From Onthophagus taurus (lineage: Eukaryota; Arthropoda; Insecta; Coleoptera; Scarabaeidae): 64,000 bases of DNA. Every line of letters begins with the position of its first letter. Within the stretch, counting starts at the first letter, position 1. The stretch spans positions 9,796,001 through 9,860,000 of the forward strand of contig NC_091976.1 in assembly GCF_036711975.1 (NCBI RefSeq). The letters are read 5' to 3'. The notes beneath the pieces were generated by a model, which searched no databases, had not been told where the DNA came from, and was given only the letters and a program-made list of their open reading frames with translations. The position numbers were made by a program, and so were the translations under genes. Shown here piece after piece: positions 4,178-50,694 of the stretch.

Positions 4178-5596
4178 ATGATGGTCGTCTTCGAGGTTGA
4201 AGCAATTATAGCGTACGACTGTAGTGCTCAGACGATTAATATTACCAGAGTATATTGGAGAAATGACCGATGTCCAAATATTACAACGAAATCGATTCTA
4301 TTCACAAAAAGTATATAACTGTTTGGTAGAGGTTACACATTCAATTACTCATTGTGGAACGCCTTGGGTGCTGATGATTGCAAAAAGATACCAACGATTT
4401 GGTCGTGAGACATCAAGATCGTATTTTGCCCTCAGCATTTTAAAAAGGAAAATATATTCGGAAATATATTTAACTGAACACCCGAGATTGGTTCTGTACT
4501 TCGTCGAGAACCAGCAATTGATACCAACATCTCATGTTATCAATCCGAGGGATGTCGAACGGCTTATATCAATAGTAAATTTATGTATGTCGAACATTCA
4601 TACAAGAAGTCCTTAAACAATTTGTACCGAGACACCGTTCAAAGGCGCTGTTTGATGAAAAGAGAGATATTGCAGAACAGATTGCTAATGGCTCCTCTTG
4701 CGCCTAATGCCGTGAGTACCCTATTGAATAATCATCCCGGTTACGTGTTGCAATGTATTCCTAAAGTGGTACAAATTCGCCGGGTTCCTAAATGTTATAA
4801 CGAATTACCAGTGACGGATAATTCAAACGAAACCTATTTTATGGCGCCGTTGACGCACATTCTATCTAAGATGGGCGAAGAAGTGGATTGTAACGTGGCG
4901 ACTCTACCAATGTTTCAATTGGAAGACAAATGGGTATCTATGGGTCCGCATCCAATCTTACAAAATCCACCGGAGAAGCTAGAAGTAAAAGAAGAAGTGG
5001 TGTTTAAATTCACGCCCTTATATACCTTTGGGGCCGCTGGGTTGTACACACAAGAAGATTTGGTTCAAGCACAAGATGCGATCCGATTTGGAATCGAACG
5101 AAATGCGATTCAAAGCATTTTAATTAGACGGTTACAAGGAAAAGATACGCATGGGAGTAATATAGACGTGGTAAATCTATTCAACCCCAGTGAGCTACGA
5201 AAATTTGCGAAAAGTACCCTATCATACCTATGGGGTTGGTTTACGGAAGTGGGTATGGCTATCAGTGGTTTCATTGGAATTATAGTTCTATTCCGTTTCT
5301 TAAAAGGGTTGGCTAGCGTAATACTAAATGGTTACGCTCTATATCGAACAATGGGTTGTGGACTGATTATTCTGGCCAGTCTCTGGAATAACTTAACCAT
5401 GTGGTTATTAAACAAACATAGACCACAAGCGAACAACCCTGATCCAGAAGTACCCTTAATACCTATTCCTGAGGACGCGTCTCCCACTATACCGAATGCT
5501 CCTTCCGAACCACAAACGATAGCTCCTAAGAAAACCTTTTATCCGTCTGTAACCGAAATACCAACATGGATGAGACCATCAACATCTACCGAGTAG
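4178..5596 (+). pseudogene. env: Env-like fusion glycoprotein, frameshifted
   Basis: Three frames carry pieces of one glycoprotein-like protein. An ATG at 4178/4181 opens a frame with Cys and N-glycosylation sites (INIT, NITT) that stops at 4318; the second piece (4224-4616 frame) has VEVTHSITHCG; the third (4583-5596) has a Cys-rich ectodomain (VQRRC, LQCIPKVVQI, KCYNELPV, DCNVATLP), a hydrophobic membrane span near residues 215-275 and a Pro-rich cytoplasmic tail. At least two frame changes (about 4300 and 4590) break it and the centre may be shortened. The C-terminal half recalls glycoproteins captured by arthropod LTR elements from negative-strand viruses of the chuvirus kind, but the class is uncertain. 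Such a protein would mediate membrane fusion; this copy is not functional. Confidence 0.65.
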
Positions 5597-24894: not shown

Positions 24895-24993
24895 GTAACG
24901 GCGTGGTTTTGTTTTTTATATGAAGAAAAATTAAGACGTAATACTTTTGTATTTAACTTTTGCCCGGTTTCTTTACAATCGTGAGTTACTTTT
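24895..24993. repeat. Right inverted terminal repeat (pLTR) of the Penelope-like element, inner part
   Basis: GGCGTGGTTTTG...GTGAGTTACTTTT is the complement of 22319-22377 plus 17888-17940. It is interrupted at ACTTTT by the Polinton and continues at 42489. Confidence 0.8.
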
Positions 24994-25640
24994 AGTAGTA
25001 TAGATTCGCCGATTCAAGAACCTCCTCCTCGAACCTGCGTTCTAGGAGGAGGTTCTTGAATCGGCAAATTTTTTGGGGGTCAGAGGAGGTTCGATGAGGA
25101 GAGGAGGTTCTTGAATCGGCGATTCTTTTGAGGGTCGGAGGAGATTCGATGAAGAGAGGAGGAGGTCAATTAACTTGAGAAGGTCATGTTATTTTGACGA
25201 AATTATTAAAAATTTATCTTTATTAAAAATGTATCTTTATTTAGGTTATGTTATTAAAAATTTATCTTTATATGTAACCTGTTTACCTAGATGAAAACAA
25301 TTACTATGTTTATCCTTCGACGCTTCTCAATGAACTGGTAATGTTTTCGATATATCTCTTAACTTATTGTACACAAAGGTATACGGTTTTGGGACATGTA
25401 GGTATACAAATAAGTGAGTCATGATCTACCTGCGGGATATTTTTTAAAATTTATTGTGTAAAGGTATACGGAGCTTTAAAATATGCGAGGAGGTTCTTGA
25501 ATCGGCAAATTTTTTGGGGGGATACGTTCGAGGAGGAGGTCAATTAACTTAATACTAGTAAGTGAGTCATGATCTACCTGCGAGATATTTTTTTAATTTA
25601 TTATGCAGAGGTATACGGAGTTATAAATATACATGTATAC
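24994..25640 (+). repeat. Left terminal inverted repeat of the Polinton
   Basis: Matches the complement of about 41850-42482, near-perfect over the outer 500 bp and with indels further in. Contains four copies of a GAGGAGGTTCTTGAATCGGC unit in both orientations, the outer two forming a hairpin (25008-25065), and AT-rich repeats of the TTTATCTTTATTAAAAA kind. No gene. 25641-25771 is the short leader before the polymerase gene. Confidence 0.85.
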
Positions 25641-29666: not shown

Positions 29667-30602
29667 TTAAAGAACGTTAGTTTTTGAGATCCAAGAATTA
29701 TGAGACGGACCTAATCCTAACCATTTCACAAACACTTGATTTCCTTTTCGCCGTAGCACTTTTTCCACCAAGTAGACGTCAGGATATTTAACTTTTTGTA
29801 ATTCCTCTCGATAAAAACCACCCATAATTTTTTCATTGGATGCATCTTTGAGCAGATATGTTGTTGGGAAAGTATTACGAACAGAATGTATTGTAAACAC
29901 TTCGTTAGACCAATTGGGAGTATAGTTTTTGGTGAAGGCGTGTCGATGCTTGCTCACTCTGACGTGATCACCGACATTAAATTTTTTGGTATAAGGATCG
30001 ACAATTTTTATGTAATTATATACAGTTTTTAACAGTGTCGATGCGTTTCTGTTATTTACCTCGCTAGGTTTCATTCCTATCGTCCTGTGAACTTGGTTGT
30101 TATAATCTAGAATTAATTTGGGAAGCAATTCCAACCAACGATAGTTACCTTGCATACTAAATTCTTTCCACATTTTTTCTTTTATTGTTCTATTAAACCG
30201 TTCAACAATAGAACTCTTTAAATTGGAAAATGAACTGTAGTGATTGATGTGATATCGTGACATGAGCTTTTTAAAATCCTCATTGTAAAATTCTTTTCCG
30301 TTATCCGTTTGCAGATTCTTCGGTATGTTTTTCCGCTTTTCCGATAGAATTGTTTCCATAGCTCGCGTAACTTCTTTGCCAGTTTTGTTTTTTAGTGGTA
30401 CAGCCCATCCATACTTTGAGAAAGCATTAATAACTGTTAGAATATATTTAAAATTACCATTTGCTTTTGAATAAGGTATCATCTCCACTAAATCAGCTTG
30501 AAATAAGTCCGTTAAACCTTTTATAATAACACGTCTGCGTTTATACTTTTTCCTCGCGGACGCGTGCAACTCGTTTACGACGGACCTTTTAATATCGCTC
30601 AT
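29667..30602 (-). CDS. Polinton integrase with chromodomain
   Basis: 311 residues, ATG 30602. Retroviral-type core: QADLVEM (first Asp), NLQTDNGKEFYN (second), SSIVERFNRTIKEKM (Glu). A VGDHVRVSK SH3-like segment follows, and a chromodomain closes the protein (YLVEKVLRRKGNQVFVKWLG, NSWI). It would insert the element with a 6-bp stagger, matching the ACTTTT duplication; the chromodomain may steer it to modified histones. Its ATG overlaps the TGA of the upstream ORF (ATGA), hinting at coupled translation or a shared transcript. The usual N-terminal zinc finger is not apparent. Confidence 0.93.
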   Translation of the reverse strand: MSDIKRSVVNELHASARKKYKRRRVIIKGLTDLFQADLVEMIPYSKANGNFKYILTVINAFSKYGWAVPLKNKTGKEVTRAMETILSEKRKNIPKNLQTDNGKEFYNEDFKKLMSRYHINHYSSFSNLKSSIVERFNRTIKEKMWKEFSMQGNYRWLELLPKLILDYNNQVHRTIGMKPSEVNNRNASTLLKTVYNYIKIVDPYTKKFNVGDHVRVSKHRHAFTKNYTPNWSNEVFTIHSVRNTFPTTYLLKDASNEKIMGGFYREELQKVKYPDVYLVEKVLRRKGNQVFVKWLGLGPSHNSWISKTNVL

Positions 30603-31024
30603 TTTCTGGATATTTCAATGAGCAGTTCTACCATAAATGGTTTCTTGAGTAAAGTGGTCTTCGTTGTGGGTTTGCAAACTATTTTATCTCCAAAGAAGAG
30701 AACATTTAACTTTTTATTTGGATCGAAGATACTCCCGTTAATAATCATTTCAACGTCTCCTTCAAATCGGTATTTCACTATTTCACCAATATATAAAAAG
30801 TTTATATATTTACTTACGTAACCTAAATTTTGAATAATGTAATAATTATCCGTTGTATCCGTAGTTCCATCTCCGCTAAACGTAAGTATAGTTGGTTGTT
30901 TGAAATATCGTTGTAAGTTTTCACGTTTATTAAAATGAGCAGCAATGTTGTGTCCGTGTACGTGTTTACCAAACTTATCGATCGTCATACTAGACGAATG
31001 TTTTCCGAACTTGCTTAAACTCAT
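30599..31024 (-). CDS. Polinton conserved small protein, unknown function
   Basis: 141 residues, ATG 31024. Begins with two KFGKH motifs (SLSKFGKHSSS, DKFGKHVHGHN), then a beta-rich part. ATGA overlap with the integrase. No catalytic motif visible. Position between integrase and the DUF8207-type gene suggests a structural or accessory virion protein, by context only. Confidence 0.65.
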   Translation of the reverse strand: MSLSKFGKHSSSMTIDKFGKHVHGHNIAAHFNKRENLQRYFKQPTILTFSGDGTTDTTDNYYIIQNLGYVSKYINFLYIGEIVKYRFEGDVEMIINGSIFDPNKKLNVLFFGDKIVCKPTTKTTLLKKPFMVELLIEISRK

Positions 31025-38880: not shown

Positions 38881-39257
38881 CTAATAGGTTCTTTTATTAC
38901 TTAGAAACTTCAGACACAACTGTCCGCAATTTTGATCTATTTCTCTTTGATATCGACAGTAATTATACTTTACTTGACCACCCCTACCGTCTGACAGCAA
39001 ATATTGTTCAATTTCTAATGGCGGTCTTAAATCACCGTAACTGTCGAAATAGTATATGTCTTTGTCGTCTTTCTTATAGGCGACCCAATGAGTCCCTCGT
39101 CCTTTCAAGTTATCCAAGTTAACAATACCTCTTTCCTTCTTTTTAATCTTACTCGGGAGATTGTCTCTCATAAATATACCCCGAAAATGTGGAATTTTTA
39201 GTACTTTCGCAAACTTTTCCAACTCGACGTTAGTTAACGCACGACGAGGTATTCGAA
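38881..39257 (-). CDS. Adenain-like maturation protease, no AUG of its own
   Basis: Cysteine protease of the adenovirus/Ulp1 type: catalytic His in GTHWVAYKK, Asp/Glu in YYFDSYGD, Gln-Cys in NCGQLCLKF. The conserved N-terminus (RRALTNVELEKFAKVLKIPHF) precedes any ATG; the first ATG is inside the fold (GIFMRDN). The frame is open back to 39257, just behind the stop of the PLA2/pVI-like gene, and in the -1 frame relative to it. A canonical A-AAA-AAC heptamer abuts that stop, so the protease is probably made as a frameshift fusion. It would cleave capsid precursors during maturation. Confidence 0.85.
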
Positions 39258-39267
39258 CTAGTTTTTT
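39258..39267 (-). promoter_or_regulatory. Candidate -1 ribosomal frameshift site
   Basis: In the frame of the PLA2/pVI-like gene the end reads TCA AAA AAC TAG: heptamer A AAA AAC, of the X XXX YYZ type known from retroviral gag-pro junctions. A -1 slip skips the TAG and enters the protease frame at CTA GTT CGA. A hairpin can form 12 bases downstream: CTCG-T-CGT pairs with ACG-T-CGAG around a 10-base loop. Confidence 0.75.
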
Positions 39268-40175
39268 GAACTAGTGGTTATACCGCAACCTTTCTTATAG
39301 GGCTTATTGAAGTAACCTGTGCCGCCAACATTATTCCCCTTTCCTTCAATAAACAAACCGCAACCTTTCTTATATGGTTTTATATAAAATCCGCTACCTA
39401 CGGCCTTTGCTTCCATAGCCTTGTTATGTCTTCGTTCTTCATCTAATTGCTCTCTAGCTGTTTTCGCGTTGTTTATAGTTCTTGCAATAGCGGCAGCACC
39501 ACCGCCGATACTACCTAGGGCACCTAAAGCTGCGAACAGGGGAATTAAAGGTAAAAATCCTCCCGTTTTCGGAATTCGAATAACTCGACCTCTAGGTTCG
39601 GAAATTCTTTTTCTTATCTTTTTCAAAGCTCCGTACGCCGCTTTAACGTTTGTCAACAAATTCTTAGCACCTGATCTCGATATTGCGTTGCGAGCGAATC
39701 GAAGTGCATCTACAAAAGATATAGCTCCACCACGCTTTACACGCGTTCGGACTTTTTTTAAAGGTCGTCGACCCGTACGATTTCTTTTTCTACCTACGCC
39801 CATACCGACCGCTACTTTTGCTTTCATTAAGGCGGCAACTGCGGACGATGCCACTTTTTCTCCAAGAGTAGACTCTTTATTTCGTATTCGTTCTTTCACT
39901 GCTTTATATAATGCTCTGTCTGCGTCGTGTCTAAATTTTAAATTTGAACTGACCGTATATGCTATATCGTGTTTCTTACACGCTTCGTCTAATGGATTCA
40001 CGCCTCGATCTCCTCTCGATAATCTCTTTTCCAACTTGGTACCCGGTCCACAAAAATTATATCCTGGCAAATGAAGTTCTATCGGAAGTTTATCTATCAA
40101 CTTGTTAAAAAATCCTCGACCAATTCGTTTGCCTGTCAAACGATAACTGTTACGATTAGGTTCTAACAAATTCAT
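39258..40175 (-). CDS. PLA2 domain plus pVI-like membrane-lytic protein
   Basis: 305 residues, ATG 40175. Residues about 36-80 have the parvovirus VP1-type phospholipase A2 signature: LPGYNFCGPGTKL (Ca loop) and PLDEACKKHDIAYT (His-Asp pair). Then basic stretches (GRKRNRTGRRPLKKVR) and a Gly/Ala/Leu hydrophobic segment (FAALGALGSIGGGAAAIA). Near the end two repeats share KPYKKGCG (GSGFYIKPYKKGCG and GTGYFNKPYKKGCG), and an N-terminal GRGFFNKL resembles them; Gly-X-Gly contexts could be protease sites. Role inferred: breaching host membranes during entry, as pVI does in adenovirus. The stop is the candidate frameshift point. Confidence 0.85.
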   Translation of the reverse strand: MNLLEPNRNSYRLTGKRIGRGFFNKLIDKLPIELHLPGYNFCGPGTKLEKRLSRGDRGVNPLDEACKKHDIAYTVSSNLKFRHDADRALYKAVKERIRNKESTLGEKVASSAVAALMKAKVAVGMGVGRKRNRTGRRPLKKVRTRVKRGGAISFVDALRFARNAISRSGAKNLLTNVKAAYGALKKIRKRISEPRGRVIRIPKTGGFLPLIPLFAALGALGSIGGGAAAIARTINNAKTAREQLDEERRHNKAMEAKAVGSGFYIKPYKKGCGLFIEGKGNNVGGTGYFNKPYKKGCGITTSSKN

Positions 40176-41849: not shown

Positions 41850-42482
41850 TTTATTAAGAAGCTCTTAAAAAATATCTCGCAGGTGGATCATGACTCATCT
41901 ACTAACAAGTTAGTTGACCTCCTCCTCAAACCTGTCCTCCCAAAAAATTTGCCGATTCAAGAACCTCCTCGCATATTCTTAAATACCCGTACACCTTTAC
42001 ATAATAAAATAAAAAATATCTCGCAGGTAAGTTATGACTCACTTATTTGTATACCTACATATCTCAAAACCGTATACCTTTGTGTATAATAATAAATTAA
42101 GAGATATATCGAAAACATTAACAGTTCATTGAGAAGCGTCGAAGGATAAACATAGTAATTGTTTTCATCTAGGTAAACAGGTTACATATAAAGATAAATT
42201 TTTAATAACATAACCTAAATAAAGATACATTTTTAATAAAGATAAATTTTTAATAAAGATAAATTTTTAATAATTTCGTCAAAATAACATGACCTTCTCA
42301 AGTTAATTGACCTCCTCCTCTCTTCATCGAATCTCCTCCGACCCTCAAAAGAATCGCCGATTCAAGAACCTCCTCTCCTCATCGAACCTCCTCTGACCCC
42401 CAAAAAATTTGCCGATTCAAGAACCTCCTCCTAGAACGCAGGTTCGAGGAGGAGGTTCTTGAATCGGCGAATCTATACTACT
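41850..42482 (-). repeat. Right terminal inverted repeat of the Polinton
   Basis: Complement of the left repeat, ending CTATACTACT before ACTTTT. The inner part differs by indels (for example an added TTTTTAATAAAGATAAA unit near 42240). Terminal hairpin at about 42411-42468. Confidence 0.85.
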
Positions 42483-42488
42483 ACTTTT

Positions 42489-43411: not shown

Positions 43412-44050
43412 CTAACGGTAGAAAAGAGAAACTTTGCACTGTTAAGTTGATACAAGACAAAATAAGTCGACTTGTCAACTTGGTAAAAATGAATCGTTGT
43501 ATGTTTTATAAAATAAGTTGTAATAAAACCTTTTAAACAAAACAGTTCAGTGAAACATTAGTTTCTTGTGTATTTAAGGACCATAAAAGAATCCCAGAAT
43601 AACAGTATCGAATATTCGTATTCACATTCATATACACATAGTTAAGAGGGCTCGATACCAGCTGATTTTTAGAAGCGTGAAAAGAGACAATAAAGTTCTG
43701 AGTGAGAAAGAGCAACTTGACAGTTCACTGTTGAACAATAAGTTGCATAATATCTAGGCGAATATATTTAAATTTTAATATTCAATTAATTATTAAATGA
43801 TACAATCAATATATTGGAATTAACAGAAAATTTACTAAACATCGGTATTAAAGGCGAAGTATACTATTTTTTAATAGAAATACTCTTAATAACATAAGTA
43901 TCAGTCAATATCTTGGGAAAATAATAAAACATAGTTAAATAAAAACATAAATTTATAGCCAATTAATAATTATTAATCCATGTTGCAAGTGAAAAATATA
44001 AAAAAATTCAAAAACAGATAAAAACTTCTAACTTGGTTTATTGTAATATA
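43412..44050. other. AT-rich spacer
   Basis: No coding sequence or recognisable repeat seen. Confidence 0.4.
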
Positions 44051-45381
44051 CAGGGTGTCACACAAAAAACGCCCCAAGCTGTAACTCTGTCATTTACATT
44101 CCGATTTTCATGAGCGGGTTATCAAATGAAATGGTTTCATGAATACTATGATTCATGCTACAAATAAATTTTTTCCAAGGCCGTCTTCAATTTTAAGCGA
44201 TTATTAACTTTTGCTTTTCAAATTGCTCTATATATTTTTCTTTATGTCATTGGATAGAGATTGTTTTTCTGAATCCACTGATGTACAATACATCCATTTT
44301 GAATATAATTTTAGTAGAGAAAACTGTATATACAGGTTGCCACACAAGAACGCCGCTAGCTGTATCTCTGTCATTTACCTTCCAATTTTCATGACCTAGC
44401 TATCAAATGAAATGGTTTGATGAATACTATGATTCATGCTACAAATAAACTTTTTCCCACGCCATCTTCAATTTCTAGCGATTATCAACATTTGATTTTC
44501 AAATTGCTCGGTATGTTTTTCTTCACGCTATTGGATAGAGTGTTTTTCTGAATCCATTAATGTACAATACATCAACATTAATTGTAATTGTAGCATAGAA
44601 AAACATTAAAATAGTTTCTGAACATTCTCTTAGAGTCACTTGTGTTATACTGTAGTGTGCCATGGGATAAATGAAAAACCAACTTATAAGTATCATTTAC
44701 AATTGCTTGGGCATTGAAATAGCATTTACTGACTGTTATCAGTTTTGCTTATTATTTTTTTCCATGGCACACTGCAGTATTACAGAAGTGACTAAGACAA
44801 TGTTCGGAAAATGTTTTAATTGTTTTTCTCTGCTAAAATTACAATTAATGTTAATGTATTGTACATCAATGGGCTCAAAAAACAATTTCTATCCCATAAC
44901 GTGAAGAAAAACATACCGAGCAATTTGACAATCAAAAGTTGATAATCGCTTGAAATCGAAGATGGCGTTGGAAAAAGTTTATTTGTAGCATGAATCATAG
45001 CATTCATCAAACCATTTCATTTGTTGCCTCGTTCATAAAAATCGGAAGGTAAATGACAGAGTTACAGCTTACGGCGTTCTTATGCGACAACCTGTATATA
45101 CAGGTGTCTTTTTTCTGCTAAAATTACATTCAAAGTGGATGTATTGCACATCAGTGGATTCAGGAAAACAATCTCTATCTAATGATGTGAAGACAAATAT
45201 ATGGAGCAATTTGAAAAACAAAAGTTAATAATAGCTTAAAATTGAAGATGGCCTTGAAAAAAATTTATTTGTAGCATGAACCATAGTATTCATCAAACCA
45301 TTTCATTTGATGCCTCGGTCATGAAAATCGGAATATAAATGACAGAGTTACAGCTTGGGGCGTTTTTTGTGTGACACCCTG
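44051..45381. repeat. 1.33-kb foldback element, Tc1/mariner-like ends, multi-unit palindrome
   Basis: Ends CAGGGTGTCACACAAAAAAC and its complement, flanked by TA. Each arm has two related units of about 280 bp (44051-44330 and 44335-44590; mirrored at 44830-45105 and 45110-45381), sharing CTGTCATTTAC, TCAAATGAAATGG, ATGATTCATGCTACAAATAAA and TGTACAATACATC. The centre is palindromic too (GTGTGCCATGG and CCATGGCACAC). The transcript would be a long hairpin, a natural source of siRNAs. No protein. Confidence 0.85.
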
Positions 45382-46249
45382 TATAAATCGGAACCGGTTT
45401 CGGAATCAACGTTCCATTATCATCCGAAAGCTAATTATCTTATCTATTAGCTTATCTATTACCAAGTTAGAAGTTTTTACCTGTTTTTGAATTTTTAATA
45501 CATTTATAGGATTATTAGCTAGTATATTTTAAAAGACCTTAACAATTTTTAGTACTAATATTTTATTGATACAATTAAATATATCAATAAAAAATAAGAA
45601 GAAAAGAACTAAAAGTAATAATTGAGGGTATATTAAAAAAAAACAAAACACACTTTAATAATAACACAGTTTTATTGAATTTCAAGTGTTAATTTTAAAT
45701 TAAGTTGCCGGAAACTCTATATACTTAGTAACTGTAGTGAATAATCTTCCAACCTACTAAATTATAAAAAAGAAGAAACAAAAAGAAAATTCAAATATCT
45801 GAAAAAAATCTAAATGAAATGAATGGTGTTCCACACAGCAAAGAGTAAATCTGTATTTCTAATTTTAATTTAAATTAGTATTCAAATGTTTGCTTATGGA
45901 ATAACACAAATTTAATCATACTCAAATCATCACGAGGTCCCATTCGTAGGCTTGTTTTTTGTCATTATTTTAAATCTCACAATTTACCACTACGCGAAAA
46001 TGTGGTCGACATTACTTGATACCTTTACTTCCGATTTTCCTAAAATACGATTTTCATCTTTACTCATATGTATTTCAATTTGCCTTGCCGACCCCCTAAC
46101 CCTGCAATACCCATTTGAAGGAGATAAAAGCAAAAAACCAGTTAAAGACGGTCAACGGTCTTTTTTGGTCTAACTACTTTGATATATAAGATTAATTAAA
46201 ATATATGTCAACGTGGTGGGCTTCGAATATTTAAACTTCTATTCTTCCT
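45382..46249. other. Unassigned spacer
   Basis: Palindrome flank, then AT-rich sequence. Frame 45952-46173 has no domain. Possibly the 3' part of the Mutator-like element; no terminal repeat identified. Confidence 0.4.
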
Positions 46250-49751: not shown

Positions 49752-50694
49752 ATGCCCGATAATAACGTTGGTGATACACAAAATTTTTCCGAAAATTTTT
49801 CTGCAGTGCGACTTCCACCTTTTTGGGTATCAAAACCTGAAATCTGGTTTACTCAGGTGGAAGCAAAATTTTCAATTTGTAATGTGCAGAATGACAAAGC
49901 TAAATACAATCTGGTGATTTCTAATTTACCGTTAGAAATCATTTCATCAGTTATTGATGTGATTAATAACCCACCAGACACAAACTTATATCCTTTTCTT
50001 AAAAAAAACTTTAATTGATAGACTATCACAAAGTGAGGAGAAACGTCTGGATGATCTCCTGTCGGGTTCAGAGATGGGAAATCAAAAACCATCTGAATTC
50101 TTCCGAGGTATGATGGTTACTGCAGGTGGTTCTCAAGTTGTAAGTCAAGACTTACTTTTAAAACTTTGGAAGAGGAGGCTTCCACACACAATTTCAGTTG
50201 CCTTACTGGCCTCTGGAAAAAGTGATCCACTTGAATTACTAACGATGGCAGATAAAATTTGGGATTCTTTAAATTCCGGTCCTTATCCATCATTAAAAGT
50301 TTCAGAAATTACGCCTGCCCAAAATTCACATTCGACGCATGATTTTCCTTTATTAAAAGCCATCAGTGATTTAACTTCAACTTGTCAAACTTTGTTGCAA
50401 ACTGTAACACAACAACACACATCTATTACATCTATTCAAAATAAAATAAATAACTTACAACAGAGTGTTGAAGATACAAATTCTTTACAACGTCAGTGTT
50501 GTTCACATTGTCGTTACAATGACAATTCTTCATTTCGTTCGCGCAATCGTACTCCTTCTCGAGAACGTTCAAACATTTGCAAATTTCATGGCAGATATGG
50601 TACCAAAGCTTATAGTTGTGAAGGTACTTGGTGTAAATTCCATAATTTAATAAAAAATAAACCAACTACATCCTATTCAAATTCAAAAAACTAA
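49752..50694 (+). pseudogene. gag: Gag of gypsy element 3, one frameshift
   Basis: ATG 49752 (MPDNNVGDTQNFSENF). FWVSKPEIWFTQVEAKFSI and LVISNLPLEI are typical insect gypsy Gag. An A8 run at about 49999 ends the frame (KKNFN stop at 50018); one A fewer would continue into LIDRLSQSEEKRLDDLL and the next frame (50074-50694: LLKLWKRRLPHTI, a CKFHGRYGTKAYSCEGTWC finger). It would coat the RNA and form particles. Its end TCA AAA AAC TAA at 50683-50694 is a candidate -1 frameshift site into pol. Confidence 0.8.
50685..50694 (+). promoter_or_regulatory. Candidate gag-pol -1 frameshift site
   Basis: A AAA AAC immediately followed by TAA in the gag frame; pol is open in the -1 frame across the stop (CTA ATT AAA GTT). 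Same heptamer and same distance to the stop as in the Polinton. Confidence 0.75.

What the first reader, a model, noticed from the sequence alone, without database searches (positions are those of the whole stretch)
39220..39275. Polinton protease apparently made by -1 frameshifting at A-AAA-AAC
The PLA2/pVI-like gene ends TCA AAA AAC TAG. The protease has no AUG before its conserved N-terminus and lies exactly in the -1 frame, open through this site; a hairpin can form 12 bases downstream. This would give a pVI-protease fusion in fixed ratio, a retrovirus-like strategy in a DNA element.
Basis: partly seen in the sequence, partly recalled or inferred. Interest (0 to 1): 0.88.

Follow-up and report, generated by a model that had tools for sequence, protein, structure and literature searches.

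The report
Polinton protease made by ribosomal frameshifting
A virus-like mobile element in a dung beetle appears to make its maturation protease only when ribosomes slip back one base at the end of a virion-protein gene, as retroviruses do, and the slip signal recurs in most of the related elements examined.

Summary
Confirmed and extended. On the minus strand the PLA2/pVI-like gene ends TCA AAA AAC TAG; the adenain-type protease is in the -1 frame, which opens 3 nt before the A AAA AAC heptamer and has no AUG until residue 34, past its first helix. The host is Onthophagus taurus, which carries many Polinton families. Of 17 junction groups read there, 13 keep a canonical heptamer with the protease in -1, although synonymous sites are near-random between families; one group uses U UUU UUA instead. 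Of 185 listed PLA2/pVI relatives, 157 end in [S/P/Q/K/T/A/R]-K-N plus 0-2 residues, as a terminal A AAA AAY would give. A gypsy element in the same window has TCA AAA AAC TAA at its gag-pol-type junction. Weak points: the hairpin is no better than chance in this element (a strong stem exists in family 2); many related proteases have a Met near their start; other-species evidence is protein-level only; no frameshifting was measured. Best reading: -1 programmed frameshifting gives a pVI-protease fusion. One preprint predicts -1 frameshifts at other adintovirus junctions; ten searches found no report of this one.

The parts
39258..40175 (-).
   Evidence: ORF; PF08398 E 7e-13; identical to a 305-aa Onthophagus taurus protein P0087
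39261..39267 (-). slippery heptamer A AAA AAC in the 0 frame
39258..39260 (-). 0-frame stop TAG directly after the heptamer
39271..39273 (-). -1-frame stop TAG that closes the protease frame 3 nt before the heptamer
38881..39270 (-). adenain-type protease frame (129 codons plus stop), in -1; first ATG at 39171-39169
   Evidence: profile match to adenovirus protease E 2.4e-6; model pLDDT 91.6; Foldseek top hits adenovirus protease
39176..39252 (-). possible long stem starting 8 nt after the heptamer (outer arms about 39252-39245 and 39183-39176); not beyond chance here
   Evidence: z -1.5; stronger at the same spacing in family 2
24993..25558 (.). left terminal inverted repeat (outer part 99-100% matched, inner parts 88-92%)
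41899..42483 (.). right terminal inverted repeat

Best explanation
Ribosomes finishing the PLA2/pVI-like virion protein mostly stop at TAG. A fraction slip back one base on A AAA AAC and continue into the protease frame, giving a pVI-protease fusion. The protease is thereby made at a low set ratio and carried into the particle attached to a virion component, as Gag-Pro is in retroviruses, and then presumably frees itself by cleavage. Shown: the anatomy, the absence of an AUG before the conserved N-terminus, recurrence of heptamer and frame in diverged families, the fold of the protease. Inferred: that slippage occurs, its rate, packaging and self-release.
For: Anatomy. M34 start would lose helix 14-23 and all but the last residue of strand 29-34. 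In 110 loci: family 1 keeps the site in 64 of 67, family 2 in 21 of 21, family 3 (U UUU UUA) in 19 of 19, L089 and L104 keep it, L088 does not; 8 of 11 further short junctions keep it. Synonymous sites near-random, e.g. 4 of 18 fourfold sites shared by families 1 and 2. 157 of 185 listed relatives with terminal K-N, each preceded by a residue that has an A-ending codon; 13 of 86 related proteases show K-K-L before the core, one doubtful. P0017 is a natural one-frame fusion of the two proteins. Gypsy comparator TCA AAA AAC TAA in the same window.
Against: No expression data. No significant stem in this element, family 3 (L091), L089 or L104. 40 of 86 related proteases have a first residue, nearly always Met, close before the core. 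Four of 17 junction groups do not fit (L088, L117, L119, L120). 28 of 185 relatives lack terminal K-N. DNA was read in one host only; some copies read are broken elsewhere (L055, L069, L090).
Confidence: 0.82

Rival explanations
1. Termination-reinitiation or a separate start: ribosomes that end the pVI-like gene restart nearby, or another mRNA is used, and free protease is made.
For: L088 has ATGA, the protease Met overlapping the 0-frame stop, and no heptamer. Many relatives have a Met at the protease start. The integrase of this element starts in an AUGA overlap with the gene before it.
Against: No ATG in the protease frame before codon 34 in family 1, and the heptamer is kept all the same; families 2, L089 and L104 likewise have their first Met about 30 residues after the site apart from single copies.
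Confidence: 0.07
2. Splicing joins an upstream exon to the protease frame.
For: The database name of P0087 says isoform X1, so several transcripts are modelled at some copy (name only).
Against: No acceptor AG at a shared position between families; family 2 has none between heptamer and core (by eye). Splicing would not need a heptamer or the -1 relation.
Confidence: 0.05
3. The K-N tail is kept for its protein function, for example as a protease cofactor, and the heptamer is a by-product.
For: Adenovirus protease is solved with an 11-residue cofactor (1nln and 1avp titles); that it comes from the pVI C-terminus is recalled.
Against: Codons NNA AAA AAC are kept in about five lineages where usage predicts about 7e-6 (my product); family 3 has no K-N but T TTT TTA in the same frame.
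Confidence: 0.04
4. Slippage of the RNA polymerase in the A run, or a non-AUG start.
For: L120 has one more A and is an in-frame fusion, so run length varies in the genome.
Against: The run is only six A in family 1; no near-cognate start shared between families was seen by eye.
Confidence: 0.02

Closest known systems
Retroviral gag-pro -1 frameshifting at A AAA AAC (MMTV, HTLV-1; recalled) and the gypsy junction at 50683-50694 of this window
   Same: Same heptamer, virion protein then protease, short overlap, -1 frame; the gypsy site shares 12 bases TTCAAAAAACTA with this one
   Different: Here a DNA element with PolB and capsid genes, and a cysteine protease of the adenain type instead of an aspartic protease
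Predicted -1 frameshifts in adintovirus penton genes and 'Hexain' (hexon-adenain) fusions, PMC11071296 (section 16 read)
   Same: Related virus group; -1 frameshift proposed, in one case to adenain
   Different: Other upstream genes (penton, hexon); KnotInFrame prediction in a preprint; the PLA2/pVI junction is not mentioned in the section read
Adenovirus protease and its 11-residue cofactor
   Same: Fold; a minor virion protein tail beside the protease
   Different: In adenovirus the protease is a separate gene product (recalled)
Bacterial IS3/IS1-type transposase frameshifting (recalled)
   Same: Mobile DNA element using a -1 slip on A runs
   Different: Bacterial; product is a transposase

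Membership tests
Polinton/Maverick | rve integrase, packaging ATPase, double jelly-roll capsid protein | tested here: met
   PF00665, PF04665, PF21738
Polinton/Maverick | protein-primed B-family DNA polymerase | tested here: inconclusive
   1066-aa ORF matched only PF02945 at E<=1e-3; polymerase motifs seen by eye only
Polinton/Maverick | terminal inverted repeats, 15-20 kb | tested here: met
   about 17.5 kb
Canonical -1 programmed frameshift site | X XXY YYZ heptamer in the 0 frame | tested here: met
   A AAA AAC
Canonical -1 programmed frameshift site | downstream ORF in -1, open at the heptamer, without its own AUG | tested here: met
Canonical -1 programmed frameshift site | stimulatory RNA structure a few nt downstream | tested here: inconclusive
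   Family 1 not beyond chance; family 2 0 of 300 synonymous shuffles as stable; pseudoknots not scored
Canonical -1 programmed frameshift site | conserved among relatives at nucleotide level | tested here: met
   13 of 17 groups in one host; other species by protein ends only
Canonical -1 programmed frameshift site | measured frameshift product | not testable with these tools
   no expression data held
Adenain (C5 cysteine protease) | fold and sequence profile | tested here: met
   Pfam PF00770 in 13 of 22 aligned members at E<=0.1, not in the window's own protein
Adenain (C5 cysteine protease) | conserved His, acidic residue and Cys | tested here: met
   H61, D76, C115 invariant in 22 sequences; their catalytic roles are recalled
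Adenovirus pVI | homology to pVI; C-terminal protease cofactor | not tested

The most novel reading that the evidence does not exclude
A clade-wide Gag-Pro-like strategy in eukaryotic dsDNA viruses: most insect Polintons make the maturation protease as a -1 frameshift fusion to the PLA2/pVI-like virion protein, the slippery heptamer being swapped between A AAA AAC and U UUU UUA under selection, and some lineages adding or replacing it with an AUGA restart. The fusion tethers the protease to the kind of tail that in adenovirus supplies its activating peptide, so that dose, packaging and activation are coupled.
Probability: 0.4. Interest if true: 0.88.

Novelty: new variant of a known kind. Interest (0 to 1): 0.77.

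Why it matters
Programmed -1 frameshifting is a staple of RNA viruses and retroelements and, to my recollection, rarely reported in eukaryotic dsDNA viruses. A conserved case at a virion protein-protease junction would mean that a DNA virus lineage reached the retroviral solution for protease dosage and packaging. It would explain why database ORFs of such proteases lack their N-terminus (P0001 starts at M34), it bears on whether Polintons form virions, and it can be tested with one reporter plasmid.

Tried and rejected
Viral contigs gave no confirmed relative for the protease, the protease alignment A1 or the pVI alignment A2; genome contigs gave none for A2. So DNA comparison rests on one host genome, and other species on protein ends.

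The hairpin as stimulator: tested by dinucleotide shuffles, synonymous shuffles and strand folding; rejected as evidence for this element, kept for family 2. A diverged family-3 copy, L090, had z about -2.3 in the longer windows.

Decay as the reason for the missing AUG: rejected, since the outer terminal repeats match at 99-100% and 31 of the 150 scored genome matches are identical over all 129 residues with an open frame.

In-frame copies: L055 has a stop elsewhere in its pVI frame; L120 is one copy with a 231-aa frame, read over 105 bases only. Neither shows an alternative design.

Papers: ten searches. Passages seen in PMC11071296 (plus its section 16), PMC8097293, PMC5803895, PMC5009743, PMC12567637, PMC10120064, PMC11071308 and PMC3671162; other listed papers only as listings. 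None of the passages describes this junction as a frameshift site. Starrett et al. 2021 is not held, and no supplement was read.

Full report
WHAT IS THERE. The element is about 17.5 kb long, bounded by inverted repeats 24993-25558 and 41899-42483. On its minus strand the PLA2-like gene 40175-39258 ends ACT AGT TCA AAA AAC TAG. The protease frame is -1 to it. That frame is closed by TAG at 39273-39271, opens at 39270, 3 nt before the heptamer A AAA AAC, and runs 129 codons; its first ATG is codon 34. Integrase, A32-type ATPase and double jelly-roll capsid domains make it a Polinton, although Pfam did not confirm the polymerase at E<=1e-3. The PLA2 protein is identical over 305 residues to a protein of Onthophagus taurus. 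In the genome held as G000 (290.8 Mb), 150 of 265 candidate protease sites were scored and all 150 matched.

THE PROTEASE NEEDS THE PART BEFORE ITS FIRST AUG. A profile of 22 relatives finds adenovirus protease among solved structures (E 2.4e-6). The AlphaFold model (mean pLDDT 91.6) begins with helix 14-23 and strand 29-34, and Foldseek ranks adenovirus proteases first (E 6e-7). A product starting at M34 would lose the helix and all but the last residue of that strand. The database ORF of this element starts there (P0001).

CONSERVATION WITHIN THE HOST GENOME. I read 110 loci. Family 1: 64 of 67 keep TCAAAAAACTAG, and 56 of these 64 keep a 126-codon frame after it. It is absent in L046 (short deletion), L055 (small deletion giving an in-frame fusion, in a copy with a stop elsewhere in its pVI frame) and L066 (degenerate). 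Family 2 (protease 57% identical to family 1): 21 of 21 keep [A/G]CA AAA AAC TAA. Family 3 (49%): 19 of 19 keep [G/A]TT TTT TTA AAG, that is U UUU UUA, with the 0-frame stop 13 codons on. L104 has CAA AAA AAC TTA TAG and L089 CAA AAA AAC TTT TAA. L088 has no heptamer; its protease Met overlaps the stop as ATGA. Before the heptamer the -1 frame is open for 3 (family 1), 9 (family 2, L089, L104) or 15 nt (family 3; 72 in one copy), with no Met in that stretch in the rows shown. Some copies read are broken in pVI, for example L069 and L090.

Eleven further junctions of 105 bases were read. L111, L112, L113, L115, L116 and L121 keep A AAA AAC with the protease in -1; L114 and L118 are family-3-like with T TTT TTA (L118 has an upstream frameshift). 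The 0-frame stop lies outside the 105 bases in L114 and L115. L117 (A17 run, protease in +1), L119 (deletions) and L120 (one more A, in-frame fusion) do not fit. In all, 13 of 17 groups fit. These are not 17 independent lineages: L089, L104, L111, L112, L113 and L121 are close, and L114 and L118 belong with family 3. By my grouping there are about five A-type lineages plus family 3.

WHY THIS LOOKS LIKE SELECTION ON NUCLEOTIDES. Proteases of the six groups compared are 44-68% identical, and fourfold sites agree at, for example, 4 of 18 (families 1 and 2), 4 of 17 and 4 of 15; one pair, L091 and L088, is higher (13 of 18). In this element AAC is 36% of Asn codons, AAA 68% of Lys codons, and A-ending codons are 21% of Ser, 41% of Ala, 58% of Arg and 72% of Gln codons. 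Given the amino acids, five lineages all having NNA AAA AAC has a chance of about 7e-6; this is my own product and uses one element's codon usage for all.

OTHER SPECIES, PROTEIN ENDS ONLY. Two searches listed 120 of 944 and 120 of 1346 PLA2/pVI relatives, 185 distinct. K-N lies 0-2 residues from the end in 157 of 185. The residue before it is S 64, P 29, Q 27, K 24, T 8, A 4, R 1; each has an A-ending codon, whereas 28% of residues before internal K-N in the first 120 proteins have none. The next codon can begin with T in 145 of 157, which in -1 gives K-K-L. In single-linkage clusters at 70% identity, 74 of 88 have a K-N member and 70 are all K-N. Of the 28 without K-N, 15 have G-[LIV]-F-L in the tail against 19 of 157 (Fisher p 4e-6, not corrected for kinship), as expected if they use U UUU UUA; on DNA this is read only in family 3 and its kin. 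Among species-named records, those of Popillia, Anoplophora, Aquatica, Photinus, Molorchus, Pyrocoelia and Episyrphus have K-N; Tribolium P0183 and Exocentrus P0218 do not.

EVIDENCE AGAINST FROM RELATIVES. Of 86 related proteases, 32 show no Met before the conserved core (some may be cut by contig ends), 40 have their first residue, nearly always Met, within 12 residues before it, and 14 have longer N-termini. Thirteen show K-K-L before the core, P0022 doubtfully. Pairs matched only by equal contig length (P0002 with P0090, P0029 with P0252, P0019 with P0210) have both a terminal K-N and a protease Met. In K-N-x-Q and K-N-x-R tails a TGA stop could create an AUGA overlap, so both routes may coexist there; that is inference without DNA. 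P0017 is a natural one-frame fusion of the two proteins.

RNA STRUCTURE. In family 1 the local hairpin is ordinary; the longer stem starting 8 nt downstream has z -1.5 or about -1 against synonymous shuffles. Family 2 has a far stronger stem at the same spacing in the longer windows (0 of 300 shuffles as stable; first of 128 windows), though not in its 50-nt window. L091, L089 and L104 show nothing; L090 has z about -2.3. The gypsy site is also unstructured (z +0.8). A stimulator of another kind, or low efficiency, remains possible.

AN INTERNAL COMPARATOR. The window holds a gypsy-type retrotransposon whose upstream ORF (no Pfam match) ends TCA AAA AAC TAA at 50683-50694, with aspartic protease, RT and RNase H in -1. 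The two elements share 12 bases, TTCAAAAAACTA, at unrelated protein junctions. It is a comparator, not proof, because slippage there is inferred too.

MECHANISM AND NOVELTY. The best reading is -1 programmed frameshifting that yields a PLA2/pVI-protease fusion in a minority of translations, so that the protease enters particles with a virion protein. Slippage, rate, packaging and self-cleavage are inferred. The nearest printed idea found is PMC11071296 (section 16 read): KnotInFrame predictions at adintovirus penton ends, and a similar relation for 'Hexain' fusions. Ten literature searches found no statement of a frameshift at this junction; Starrett et al. 2021 was not held. -1 frameshifting for a protease is a known kind; the setting and its conservation make this a new variant.

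Noticed in passing
50683-50694 (+): Gypsy-type retrotransposon whose upstream ORF ends TCA AAA AAC TAA with the pol frame in -1: the same site as the Polinton junction, 12 shared bases.
   Followed up: partly
30599-30614 (-): The gene before the integrase ends AAA TGA and the integrase starts ATG AGC in the same bases: an AUGA stop-start overlap in the same element.
   Followed up: no
L088, junction before the protease: A Polinton with no heptamer whose protease Met overlaps the stop as ATGA, a possible restart mechanism replacing the frameshift.
   Followed up: partly
L055 and L120: Natural copies in which small indels put both genes in one frame; L055 is broken elsewhere, L120 was read over 105 bases only.
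   Followed up: partly
44047-45385: Nested imperfect inverted repeats of 200-280 nt, a foldback-type element.
   Followed up: no
4212-5596 (+): Two overlapping ORFs; the second has hydrophobic stretches and looks glycoprotein-like by eye. The first has AAATTTA near its end with -1 open for 337 codons. Nature uncertain.
   Followed up: no
database proteins P0208, P0209, P0240: Polinton PLA2 proteins filed under bacterial names (Enterobacter, Pseudogracilibacillus, Rickettsia endosymbiont), probably insect DNA in bacterial assemblies.
   Followed up: no
G000: The O. taurus genome holds many Polinton families, some with dozens of copies with identical proteases, which suggests recent activity.
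   Followed up: partly
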